Source of the DNA: Prochlorococcus sp. AG-347-J21
Lineage (GTDB): Bacteria; Cyanobacteriota; Cyanobacteriia; PCC-6307; Cyanobiaceae
Reading direction: 5' to 3'
DNA length: 64,000 nt
NCBI GenBank assembly: GCA_003281455.1
Contig: QCBX01000008.1
Coordinates: forward strand, 1 to 64,000
The notes beneath the pieces are model-generated. The model made no database searches. It had not been told where the DNA came from and was given only the letters and a program-made list of their open reading frames with translations. Made by a program: the position numbers and the translations under genes. Positions 19,708 to 37,780 of the stretch are shown here, in pieces (position 1 is the first letter of the stretch; every line of letters begins with the position of its first letter).

Positions 19708-21933
19708 TTAAGTTAATTCCAAATCAATTTGATATTTAAGAATATCAACTTTTATAATTTTAACTTCTATTTCATCACCAACTTTATATGATTTCTTAGA
19801 TTTCCTTCCGATTAATATATTTTGTCTAGATCTATATTCAAACCAATCATTATTTAGGGTGCTCACATGGACAAGTCCCTCTACATTTAGTTCTGATATC
19901 TCAACAAAAAAACCATAACTTTGTACTGATAGGATAAATCCACTGTAAATGTTGCCTAATAATTTTTCTGCCTTTCTTACTTTTTTTATACTTATCATAT
20001 TAGATTTATATTGATTCACTTTGTACTTATATTCATTAAGTTTATCTATTACAAACTGGTTTAATAATGTATCTATATTCCTTGAAATTGATGAATTAAA
20101 TATTTCCCAATTTACTAAATTCAATGAATTACTCTCTAATATATTTATCTCGTTAATATTATTTTTTTTTGATTTCTTACCATTTATTATCATATTAAAG
20201 ATACAATACTGATTGATAAGATGCGTGAATTCATATCCAGGAATTGTCCATGGAGAAATAAATTGTTTTTCTGATTCATCATCATCTACATTTTTAGTAA
20301 TAAGGCGTAGTTCATTTTCCTTAAATTCATTAATTAATAGTTTATGAAAGATTCTTTTTTTATTATCATTGCTGCCGCACATATTAATTAATTGACTAAA
20401 TGATAAATTTCCATCTTCATTTAGCTCAATATCATTATCGATAAATTCTGAATATTTGATGATTTCATTTGCATTAATGTAATCTAATCCCTCTGAGAGA
20501 TATCCTGCACTTTTTAAGCAAAATTGATTTGAATGTTTGAACCATATTAAGTTAGCTTCATGTAGTAGTGGAGAAATGAATGTTTGACAATCTTCCTTTT
20601 TTAATGGTTCAAAATATCCTTTTGAACATTCACCTGGATTGTGAATAAAGAATTCATCTAATTCTTCAATTTTATTTAGTGGATTAGGGATTTCAACCTT
20701 ACCTTCCAAAAGATGTTTTTGTCTGAATGAAGTTGCAATATCCAGTATTTTATCTAGATCTTCGATATGTTCCTTTATAGGTTTTAATAATCTCGAGGTT
20801 ATTCTCGTTTTACTTTTTCTTGAGATTAGCGCCTCAGTATGATCACTTCCCACAACAAGAGAGCACTTTACTAAAGTGAGGTGAAATGACCACGCAATTA
20901 TTTCATTATCGCTATTCAAATTTAAACAGAGGCTAATTGCTTCATTCTTTTCACCTAATTTAAATTTAGAGGCATTTCTTATAGCTTCACTAAGATAGTT
21001 TTGCCAATTATTCAATAAGGGTAATGATTCAAAGCCTTTAAAGAATATTCCTAAGGATTTTTTACTGTTAAAATCAATTCTTTCTGCAAGATTATTTGTA
21101 TGTATCCATAATTTAGTACTCATATTTTTCCCCTGCTCTATTTGAATCATTGGTAGCGTTGGAGAATTATCAGAATTCCAACTTTTGAACAGATAAGAGT
21201 TTTTATCTGTTAAGTCTATCCTTTCCCTTTTCTCAATCTTTTTGGATGCAATAAGATTTTCATTAATTAAATTCACGATATTGCTTTTTGATAAAACAAA
21301 ATCTGTATCTAATTCTTCATTTTCATTCAGTTGTAGTTCTTGTATCACGTGGCCTAATCCTTCATCTTGACCTATGGGAAATCTATCAATCTCAACTTTA
21401 ACTATATTTTTATCTTCAGGTTTGTAAGTGTATTTCTTATCCTCTTTGGGAAGTTTTATTTTAGATAGAATCCTATCATCTATTGGAATGGCATATATGT
21501 CATCATTTATTATTTCAACTTTAGAAAGAAGTATTTGATTTGATCTTTCGAGAATACAATCAACTATTCCCTCCGGAGATCTTCTCCTATATCCCTCTTT
21601 TATTATCCTTATTAAAACTTTATCTCCATTCCAAGCATAATTAAGAAGATTTTCTTTAATGTAAATATCTTCTTTGTTTTTTCCCCTTACTGCAAAGCAA
21701 TAACCTTTGCTACTACACCTAATTTTTGCGACAATATGATCATTATCTTTCCTGCAGGTATATATGTTGTCTGCATTTTTATTTATTATTTCAAGTTTTT
21801 CTAAGGCTGTTAAAGCAATATCTAATTTATCCTTATCAGATTTCTTAGTTATTTTTAAAGTTCTGCATAATTTTTTATATTCTAACCCCTCTGATTGATT
21901 AAGATTATCAATTATTGAAGAGGATGTGAACAT
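19708..21933 (-). CDS. RNase R/II (RNB) family protein with probably degenerate active site
   Basis: 741 aa; cold-shock-like region (AKIRCSSKGYCFAVRGKNKEDIYI), RNB-like middle, C-terminal S1 domain (GNIYSGFILSVQSYGFFVEI); canonical catalytic motifs not recognisable. Confidence 0.75.
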   Translation of the reverse strand: MFTSSSIIDNLNQSEGLEYKKLCRTLKITKKSDKDKLDIALTALEKLEIINKNADNIYTCRKDNDHIVAKIRCSSKGYCFAVRGKNKEDIYIKENLLNYAWNGDKVLIRIIKEGYRRRSPEGIVDCILERSNQILLSKVEIINDDIYAIPIDDRILSKIKLPKEDKKYTYKPEDKNIVKVEIDRFPIGQDEGLGHVIQELQLNENEELDTDFVLSKSNIVNLINENLIASKKIEKRERIDLTDKNSYLFKSWNSDNSPTLPMIQIEQGKNMSTKLWIHTNNLAERIDFNSKKSLGIFFKGFESLPLLNNWQNYLSEAIRNASKFKLGEKNEAISLCLNLNSDNEIIAWSFHLTLVKCSLVVGSDHTEALISRKSKTRITSRLLKPIKEHIEDLDKILDIATSFRQKHLLEGKVEIPNPLNKIEELDEFFIHNPGECSKGYFEPLKKEDCQTFISPLLHEANLIWFKHSNQFCLKSAGYLSEGLDYINANEIIKYSEFIDNDIELNEDGNLSFSQLINMCGSNDNKKRIFHKLLINEFKENELRLITKNVDDDESEKQFISPWTIPGYEFTHLINQYCIFNMIINGKKSKKNNINEINILESNSLNLVNWEIFNSSISRNIDTLLNQFVIDKLNEYKYKVNQYKSNMISIKKVRKAEKLLGNIYSGFILSVQSYGFFVEISELNVEGLVHVSTLNNDWFEYRSRQNILIGRKSKKSYKVGDEIEVKIIKVDILKYQIDLELT

Positions 21934-22004: not shown

Positions 22005-22316
22005 CTAATTATTTTCTTTAACTTCTTTTTCTTCTTCATCGATAGTGAATGAGCTTATAAAAAGCCTAATGCCAATAATAAAAAATGTTATTGAGGCTAT
22101 TGATTTGAGGACTACTTCGGGTAAAAAACTTGAGAAAGAACCTCCCGTTAAAGCTCCTAGTAAACTAGCAAAAACTAGTGCAGAAGATGATCCTAAAAAA
22201 ACTGCTAATGGTTTCTTTGAAGTTCCGCTTATTGTTAATGTGGCTAGCTGGGTTTTGTCACCTAATTCAGCTATAAAAACTGTTAGAAATGTAGATAGTA
22301 GTAAACTTAAAACCAT
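22005..22316 (-). CDS. UPF0016/GDT1 family half-size membrane protein (candidate Mn exporter subunit)
   Basis: FIAELGDKTQLATL motif. Confidence 0.85.
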   Translation of the reverse strand: MVLSLLLSTFLTVFIAELGDKTQLATLTISGTSKKPLAVFLGSSSALVFASLLGALTGGSFSSFLPEVVLKSIASITFFIIGIRLFISSFTIDEEEKEVKENN

Positions 22317-22643
22317 TTATAAATAATTCTTGAGAGTATCGTAGGCTAGAAATATACTTATTATTATCATTAAAGCACCAGCAGACAAGTTAAATTTGCT
22401 TGGAGATATTTTCTTTGATAACCATTTGCCAATTAGGACTCCTACTACACTAGAGCTTATTAGAGCTAGAGAACTTCCAAGAAAAACAATTATTGGCTTT
22501 CCTGATTCAGCGGAAAGCATTAATGTAGCAATCTGGGTTTTATCGCCTAGTTCAGCAATAAAAATTGTTGTAAAAGTCGTTATAAATATAGATAGGAAAC
22601 TTTTTTCTAAATTATTTTCTTTTTTTTCAAATTTGATATTCAT
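22317..22643 (-). CDS. UPF0016/GDT1 family half-size membrane protein (candidate Mn exporter subunit)
   Basis: FIAELGDKTQIATL motif; abuts its paralogue. Confidence 0.85.
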   Translation of the reverse strand: MNIKFEKKENNLEKSFLSIFITTFTTIFIAELGDKTQIATLMLSAESGKPIIVFLGSSLALISSSVVGVLIGKWLSKKISPSKFNLSAGALMIIISIFLAYDTLKNYL

Positions 22644-36595: not shown

Positions 36596-37780
36596 TTAAT
36601 AAATAAACTCTAAATGATTACTATCATTTATTATATATTTAACTTTATATATTTTATTACTATATAATTCTATTGATACAAAAAGAGTAATAAGTATTTC
36701 TAGTGAATAATCTGGAAAATAAACCAAAGCAATATTTTTTTTATGATTAATCCACTTAACGAATATTATTTTATAAAAAGCTTTTCTTTCATTCTTAAAA
36801 AATAATGTTAAAAACTTATATTTATCATTTTTAAATATATTGTTATTCTCTGATTGTCTATTTTTTGAATAGTCTATAATCTTAGAGACTGAATCTTTAC
36901 TTAGAACATCGTAATTATTAATTTTATTATAGACTTGCCTTTGTATAATTAAATCAAGATATCTTCGCAGTGGTGATGTGCATTGTACATACATTTTAAG
37001 GCCTAAGGATTCATGGATTCCTGGCTTAGTATTTATGTAACTTTTTCCCATATATTGTTTTAATATTATATATTTAATATCACTATCAATGTATCTATTA
37101 AGAATTTCAGATGGATTACAGTTTAATTTTTGAATCCTAAATGCAGCAGCTAAATTATATTTATCTAAAAATAAACTTGTTACATAACCCATTAATATCA
37201 TTGATTCTGCAACTATAATTTGTGATATTGTTTTCTCTAATTTAGTTAGTATAATCTTATCCTCATATAATTTAATTTTACTATTAGGACTTTCAAAAAT
37301 AATAGCTCCTTGTTTCTTTCTGAATTTAATACTTTTTTCTAATAAATTTTTAATCTCAATTAATTCTATTTCTTCTTTAGGTTCTATGTCTAATATTTCA
37401 TTTGCATCTTCATATGTTATTTGATATTTTGGTTTTATTATTGCTTCAGTTATTTCATATTTATTTATTGATCCATCGTCATTGAATTCTATTGCTGCAC
37501 TAATAGTTTCTGAAACTTTATTTTGAGCTAGATTTGCCTTTTCAAGAATATCTTTAGGCAGCATTGGGACATATTGATCAATTAAATATAAACTGCTATT
37601 TCTCTTTCTTGCATTTAAATCAATATTAGAATCATGCAAAAAGTGTTTGCATGGATTACTAATATGTATCCATAAAATTTTTTTATTTACTTCTTTTATT
37701 TCTAATGAAACAGCGTCATCAACCTCATGTGGATCATCAGAGTCAATAATATATGTTTTTAAATTAGTTAGATCTTTCAA
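36596..37780 (-). CDS. RNB-domain ribonuclease (minimal, 394 aa)
   Basis: IDSDDPHEVDDAVSLE and CTSPLRRYLDLIIQRQ catalytic motifs intact. Confidence 0.88.
   Translation of the reverse strand: MKDLTNLKTYIIDSDDPHEVDDAVSLEIKEVNKKILWIHISNPCKHFLHDSNIDLNARKRNSSLYLIDQYVPMLPKDILEKANLAQNKVSETISAAIEFNDDGSINKYEITEAIIKPKYQITYEDANEILDIEPKEEIELIEIKNLLEKSIKFRKKQGAIIFESPNSKIKLYEDKIILTKLEKTISQIIVAESMILMGYVTSLFLDKYNLAAAFRIQKLNCNPSEILNRYIDSDIKYIILKQYMGKSYINTKPGIHESLGLKMYVQCTSPLRRYLDLIIQRQVYNKINNYDVLSKDSVSKIIDYSKNRQSENNNIFKNDKYKFLTLFFKNERKAFYKIIFVKWINHKKNIALVYFPDYSLEILITLFVSIELYSNKIYKVKYIINDSNHLEFIY

What the first reader, a model, noticed from the sequence alone, without database searches (positions are those of the whole stretch)
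20221..21240. RNase R-like protein with an apparently dead RNB active site
The 741-aa protein (19708..21933) keeps a cold-shock-like N-terminus and a C-terminal S1 domain. Where RNB enzymes carry the Asp cluster (DxxDxDDA), it reads RIDLTDKNSYLFKSWNSDNSPTLPMIQIEQ (about 21100..21240). Where they carry TSPxRRYxD, it reads ISPWTIPGYEFTHLINQ (about 20221..20265). Both the metal-binding aspartates and the RR pair look lost, while the reading frame is intact over 2.2 kb. That suggests retention as a non-catalytic RNA-binding pseudoenzyme.
Basis: partly seen in the sequence, partly recalled or inferred. Interest (0 to 1): 0.72.

Follow-up and report, generated by a model that had tools for sequence, protein, structure and literature searches.

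The report
Zam, a catalytically dead RNase R relative
The gene encodes Zam, a protein found in nearly all cyanobacteria that looks like an RNA-degrading enzyme but has lost every residue needed to cut RNA; this was already published for the family, although the marine picocyanobacterial version is further altered in a way not described in the papers I could read.

Summary
The 741-aa frame is intact and has the domain order OB/CSD–CSD2–RNB–S1. Profile alignment puts K, P, L, P where RNase II/R has its four catalytic Asp; the TSPxRRYxD arginines and two substrate-site Tyr are also gone. The protein is Zam (Synechocystis sll1910, PCC 7002 A1543), described in 2022 as a cyanobacterial RNB protein with a degenerate active site and two redox-active CSD1 cysteines, C73 and C79. 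The window protein has cysteines at exactly 73 and 79. Zam is in 75/76 near-complete genomes of the family, forms one clade with other cyanobacterial Zam proteins, and is under purifying selection (dN/dS about 0.15).

Beyond the papers read: in all 81 sampled picocyanobacterial Zam proteins no catalytic Asp remains, and the site has become a new fixed pattern (W…P.LP) instead of drifting. The RNase II with intact catalytic motifs in the same window has shrunk to a bare RNB core.

Most likely mechanism: a non-catalytic, redox-switched RNA-binding or degradosome adaptor. Caveat: the Anabaena protein called Zam (Alr1240) is reported to degrade RNA. RNA binding was not shown here.

The parts
19708..21933 (-). 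zam: 741-aa RNase II/R-family protein without a catalytic site
   Evidence: ORF intact; Pfam OB_RNB, CSD2, RNB, S1; one clade with Zam proteins of 54 other sampled Cyanobacteriia sequences
21559..21738 (-). CSD1/OB_RNB domain (residues 66-125) with RCSSKGYCFA; Cys73 and Cys79 are the published redox pair
   Evidence: Cys at 73 and 79 in the window protein; CC in 132 of 143 Zam proteins; domain dN/dS 0.05; paper PMC9145284
21304..21558 (-). CSD2 domain (residues 126-210, approximate)
   Evidence: Pfam CSD2 above cut-off, two stretches, best 87-131; boundary inferred from alignment to RNase R
20044..21222 (-). degenerate RNB domain (residues 238-630, approximate)
   Evidence: Pfam RNB 46.9 bits over 238-542; hhalign to intact RNB enzymes E 6e-31, collinear
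21136..21222 (-). former Asp cluster (residues 238-266): DLTDKNSYLFKSWNSDNSPTLPMIQIE, now a picocyanobacteria-wide W252, P258, L260, P261 pattern
   Evidence: P 80/81, L 77/81, P 78/81 in family orthologues; 0 of 4 Asp in 81/81; column conservation
20203..20259 (-). former TSPxRRYxD motif (residues 559-577), replaced; N574 Q575 invariant in the family sample
   Evidence: alignment; N and Q 100% in 48 family sequences
19711..19971 (-). C-terminal S1 domain (residues 655-741)
   Evidence: Pfam S1 48.4 bits; dN/dS 0.05
36596..37780 (-). the catalytically intact RNB protein of the same genome (RNase II type), reduced to a bare RNB core; the comparison partner, not part of zam
   Evidence: PF00773 183 bits, only domain found; motifs intact; second of two RNB proteins in this genome

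Best explanation
This is the picocyanobacterial orthologue of Zam, a cyanobacterial branch of the RNase II/R family that no longer hydrolyses RNA. SHOWN HERE: the fold-defining domains are kept; the metal-binding Asp cluster, the arginines of TSPxRRYxD, and the residues aligned to the substrate-site Tyr253 and Tyr313 of RNase II are gone; the protein is conserved and under purifying selection, most strongly in CSD1 and S1; the redox cysteines C73/C79 are kept. KNOWN FROM PAPERS on relatives: in PCC 7002 both cysteines are needed in vivo, the deletion mutant makes less phycocyanin and has a changed PSI:PSII ratio; [quoted passage not shown] INFERRED: Zam acts as a non-catalytic adaptor that contacts RNA and/or RNase E through its OB and S1 domains, with the CSD1 dithiol/disulfide in the L12 loop reporting the photosynthetic redox state, so that RNA turnover follows light and redox. 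In picocyanobacteria the dead site has been rebuilt into a conserved hydrophobic P/L/P/W surface, which would suit a protein contact or structural plug rather than a vestige. Confidence: identity as Zam about 0.97, catalytically dead about 0.9, the adaptor mechanism as a whole about 0.5.
For: Domains. Asp, Arg and Tyr columns lost: D201 K, D207 P, D209 L, D210 P, Y253 P, Y313 S, R500 Y in the window protein, 0/4 Asp in 81/81 family members. Collinear profile alignments to intact RNB enzymes. One Zam clade across Cyanobacteriia, SH-aLRT 98. C73/C79. dN/dS 0.155 overall, CSD1 0.050, S1 0.054, RNB 0.195; in the same five genomes 0.150 against 0.209 for the intact RNase II. Papers PMC9145284, PMC10989914, PMC10783494.
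Against: The review PMC10989914 says Alr1240, which PMC9145284 calls Zam, degrades unstructured RNA in vitro; if Alr1240 is Zam, loss of the Asp cluster need not mean inactivity in that lineage. Purified PCC 7002 Zam bound no RNA in the assays tried, with an aggregation caveat. No reliable structure of the window protein could be made. No experiment on a picocyanobacterial Zam was found.
Confidence: 0.55

Rival explanations
1. Division of labour in trans: in streamlined picocyanobacteria the intact RNase II has lost its N-terminal CSD-like, winged-helix and HTH domains and is a bare RNB core, while Zam has lost catalysis but kept CSD1, CSD2 and S1. Zam would supply RNA binding or substrate delivery to that core.
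For: Window RNase II has only an RNB match, and so do two orthologues from other small genomes; a full-length cyanobacterial RNase II has CSD_RNase_II, wH_RNase_II and HTH_RNase_II in addition. Across the family the frame is about 400-470 aa in small genomes and 600-740 aa in most larger ones; N-terminal residues before the active site are 13-64 against 274-306.
Against: Zam lost its Asp cluster in large-genome cyanobacteria that keep a full-length RNase II, so the two losses did not arise together. No contact between the two proteins is known. Co-purification work in Anabaena found RNase E, not RNase II of the other type, as partner.
Confidence: 0.15
2. Zam is still an exoribonuclease that uses a rearranged or weaker active site.
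For: Alr1240 is reported to degrade unstructured RNA (PMC10989914). A few Zam proteins outside picocyanobacteria keep 3 of 4 Asp (L056, L093, L137, L136) and TSPxRRYxD.
Against: In picocyanobacteria no Asp of the four is left in 81/81 and R500, Y253, Y313 are replaced too. No alternative acidic cluster stands out among the conserved RNB columns. Purified PCC 7002 Zam was inactive on RNase II substrates. Deletion of the other RNB gene is lethal in PCC 6803 and PCC 7002, so Zam does not stand in for it.
Confidence: 0.07
3. A decaying gene: the RNB domain drifts and the gene will be lost.
For: RNB is the least conserved domain (mean commonest-residue frequency 0.52 against 0.83 for CSD1) and branches are long (1.35 and 1.37 changes per column leading to the family and to the genus).
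Against: Intact in 22/22 near-complete genomes of a genus known for streamlining; dN/dS 0.155, no higher than the intact RNase II; new fixed residues at the old catalytic columns.
Confidence: 0.03
4. Zam acts at the ribosome: its closest solved relative by profile is the RNase R seen bound to 30S subunits, and a dead version could bind 30S without degrading it.
For: Best profile match in the PDB is RNase R of entries 8cdu/8cec, E 2.9e-66; the library holds a paper on RNase R-30S degradation intermediates (PMC10901742, listed).
Against: Similarity to an RNase R chain says nothing about the binding site; the contact residues were not tested.
Confidence: 0.1

Closest known systems
Zam (Synechocystis sll1910; PCC 7002 A1543), Thomas et al. 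2022, PMC9145284
   Same: Two cold-shock domains, RNB and S1; degenerate RNB active site; cysteines at 73 and 79; one per genome beside an intact RNase II; one clade
   Different: In picocyanobacteria the TSPxRRYxD motif is also gone and the Asp columns carry a fixed P/L/P pattern with conserved Trp; most other Cyanobacteriia keep much of TSPxRRYxD. The paper's main text does not mention Prochlorococcus or marine Synechococcus.
RNase R / RNase II (E. coli rnr, rnb; B. subtilis RNase R)
   Same: Domain order and collinear RNB fold by profile
   Different: No catalytic Asp, no RR pair, scores 160 bits against the RNase R equivalog cut-off of 598
Yeast Ssd1 and other fungal RNase II-family pseudonucleases (PMC8934651, PMC8097288, listed)
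   Same: RNB-family proteins that lost catalysis and were kept; Ssd1 is an RNA-binding protein
   Different: Separate origin in the Dis3/Dis3L2 branch; no redox cysteine pair is part of that story as far as I know. Only abstracts were read.
Alr1240 of Anabaena PCC 7120
   Same: Identified as Zam by PMC9145284; RNase E partner
   Different: Reported as an active RNase II in the review PMC10989914; its sequence was not examined here and the primary paper is not held

Membership tests
Zam | Two CSD/OB domains, RNB, S1 | tested here: met
Zam | Cysteine pair C73/C79 in CSD1 | tested here: met
   Cys at 73 and 79, in RCSSKGYCFA
Zam | RNB active site lacking the four acidic metal ligands | tested here: met
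   0 of 4
Zam | Groups in one clade with other cyanobacterial Zam, apart from the cyanobacterial RNase II | tested here: met
   SH-aLRT 98 quick tree; outgroup rows are long-branched
Zam | Reciprocal best hit with the named PCC 7002 or PCC 6803 gene | not tested
   No named genome could be fetched: the genome-contig scan failed
Zam | Loss of the gene gives acetazolamide resistance and lower phycocyanin | not testable with these tools
   needs a mutant
RNase R/II exoribonuclease | RNB fold | tested here: met
   Pfam 46.9 bits; hhalign E 6e-31
RNase R/II exoribonuclease | Four catalytic Asp (DxxDxDD) | tested here: not met
   K, P, L, P
RNase R/II exoribonuclease | TSPxRRYxD with the catalytic Arg | tested here: not met
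   Y at R500
RNase R/II exoribonuclease | NCBIfam TIGR02063 equivalog cut-off | tested here: not met
   160.1 against 597.85 bits
RNase R/II exoribonuclease | Measured 3'-5' hydrolysis | not testable with these tools
   needs purified protein

The most novel reading that the evidence does not exclude
In picocyanobacteria Zam's dead active site has been rebuilt into a conserved non-catalytic surface (W252, P258, L260, P261, W276, E284, R285, W310, N574, Q575), a lineage-specific binding site for a protein or RNA. In the streamlined members it works together with an RNase II that has been stripped to its catalytic core, so that one ancestral enzyme layout is now divided between a nuclease without RNA-binding domains and RNA-binding domains without a nuclease.
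Probability: 0.2. Interest if true: 0.6.

Novelty: already known. Interest (0 to 1): 0.33.

Why it matters
Many genome annotations call this gene a ribonuclease R, which is misleading for anyone modelling RNA decay in the most abundant photosynthetic cells in the sea. It also bears on an open conflict: Zam is described as a dead nuclease in one paper while the Anabaena protein identified as Zam is reported active. The picocyanobacterial form, with no catalytic residue left, is the cleanest case in which to separate scaffold function from nuclease function, and its conserved replacement site gives definite residues to mutate.

Tried and rejected
Displaced Asp cluster: looked for in MAFFT and profile-profile alignments, not found. 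Frameshift or assembly error: rejected, same state in 81 family sequences. Gene decay: rejected by dN/dS and fixed new residues. A Zam with all four Asp as a living ancestor: none in 143 sequences; four keep three, and these sit at or near the base of the tree as rooted on a distant, long-branched outgroup, so I draw no firm conclusion on the order of losses. Structure: single-sequence AlphaFold gave mean pLDDT 31, unusable, so no fold search was run; an alignment-based model was not attempted because loci from the genome search are not on that tool's list of accepted sources. Primary paper on Alr1240 not held.

Full report
OBSERVATION. The frame 19708..21933 (-) encodes 741 aa without interruption. 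Pfam reports OB_RNB, CSD2, RNB and S1, all above their cut-offs; RNB scores only 46.9 bits, against 183 for a second RNB protein at 36596..37780 (-) in the same window. The genome holds these two RNB proteins and no more. Against the NCBI RNase R model the window protein scores 160 bits where 598 are required.

ALIGNMENT. With E. coli RNase R and II taken from the K-12 genome, MAFFT aligns RIDLTDKNSYLFKSWNSDNSPTLPMIQIE to [28 protein letters not shown], and profile-profile alignment of 21 family sequences against 10 catalytically intact ones is collinear through the whole domain (E 6e-31) and gives the same register to within the short insert. In RNase II numbering the window protein has K at D201, P at D207, L at D209, P at D210, P at Y253, S at Y313 and Y at R500. 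The F358, E390 and E542 columns are poorly aligned even among the intact enzymes, so I draw nothing from them.

HOW GENERAL. Orthologues occur in 75 of 76 near-complete genomes of the window's family, 22 of 22 in its genus, and in the other Cyanobacteriia drawn, but not in the non-photosynthetic sister groups listed in the phylum draw. In 81 family sequences none has any of the four Asp. In 62 sequences from the rest of the class 44 have none, and the most is three of four, in four sequences. Outside the family the TSPxRRYxD motif is mostly kept in part. A tree of 113 sequences puts all Zam proteins in one clade (SH-aLRT 98), picocyanobacteria in one clade (100), with long branches of 1.35 to the family and 1.37 to the window's genus. 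The tree is a quick one and its outgroups are long.

CONSTRAINT. Over 34 sequences of the genus dN/dS is 0.155; 0.050 in CSD1, 0.054 in S1, 0.195 in RNB. In the same five genomes it is 0.150 for Zam and 0.209 for the catalytically intact RNase II. The old catalytic columns are not drifting in picocyanobacteria: P258, L260, P261, W252, W276, E284, R285, W310, N574 and Q575 are 88-100% fixed in the 48 sequences that represent the family, while the rest of the class has other or mixed letters there.

IDENTITY. A literature search led to Zam. Thomas et al. 2022 (PMC9145284) describe it as a cyanobacterial RNB clade with two cold-shock domains, RNB and S1, a degenerate active site, and redox-active C73 and C79 in CSD1, both needed in vivo. 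The window protein has RCSSKGYCFA with cysteines at exactly 73 and 79. The pair is CC in 132 of 143 sampled sequences; five picocyanobacteria have C73S, two have C79S, and one family of small-genome thermophile-like sequences (f19) has lost it, so 'invariant' is slightly too strong.

MECHANISM. What is shown: a conserved, constrained protein with RNA-binding-type domains and no catalytic residues. [quoted passage not shown] What is inferred: a non-catalytic, redox-controlled adaptor of RNA turnover. The conflict is real: the review PMC10989914 calls Alr1240 an RNase II active on unstructured RNA, while PMC9145284 argues no Zam is a nuclease. I could not check the Alr1240 sequence or the primary paper.

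NEIGHBOURHOOD. Upstream on the same strand lie two small GDT1-type cation antiporter genes; both were found next to zam in 48 of 48 family loci. Downstream lie a 148-aa LapA-like protein, a DUF2996 protein and acsF, the chlorophyll-synthesis cyclase. None of these neighbours was found by similarity in the 24 loci from outside the family, whose flanks were short.

THE OTHER RNB PROTEIN. The catalytically intact RNase II of the window keeps its motifs but has only about 13 residues before the active-site motif stretch, against 274-306 in full-length cyanobacterial RNase II, whose N-terminal part matches CSD_RNase_II, wH_RNase_II and HTH_RNase_II. Frames of about 400-470 aa are the rule in the small-genome picocyanobacteria and 600-740 aa in most of the larger ones. 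I did not test the correlation statistically.

VERDICT. Observation confirmed; interpretation right in substance and already published for the family. The lineage-specific replacement pattern and the stripped RNase II are the parts I did not find in the papers read; that is not a claim that nobody has reported them.

Noticed in passing
window 36596..37780 (-): RNase II with intact catalytic motifs but no N-terminal CSD-like, winged-helix or HTH domains; probable TTG start right after rpsR. The same short form appears in small-genome picocyanobacteria generally.
   Followed up: partly
window 22005..22643 (-): Two adjacent half-size GDT1/UPF0016 cation antiporter genes directly upstream of zam; the adjacency is kept in 48 of 48 family loci.
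   Followed up: partly
L056, L093, L137, L136 (genomes G134, G150, G291, G269): Zam proteins that keep three of the four catalytic Asp and TSPxRRYxD; candidates for residual nuclease activity.
   Followed up: no
L082, L148, L149, L142 (genomes G208, G304, G294, G312, family f19): Zam proteins that lack the C73/C79 pair and have a shortened active-site region, with very long branches.
   Followed up: no
genome G310 (family f48): A 99% complete, one-contig genome of the class with the intact RNase II but no Zam found.
   Followed up: no
genome G319 (family f15): A near-complete genome with Zam (L134) but no second RNB protein found in two searches; may be an assembly gap.
   Followed up: no
genome G250, C6:1830304-1830642 (+): A 177-aa frame matching only the C-terminal S1 part of Zam (45% over residues 632-738), about 3 kb from the full Zam.
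   Followed up: no
window 21558..21556 (-), Cys126: A third cysteine at the CSD1/CSD2 border is present in all 52 family sequences of one alignment and Leu or Val elsewhere; it could join the redox chemistry.
   Followed up: no
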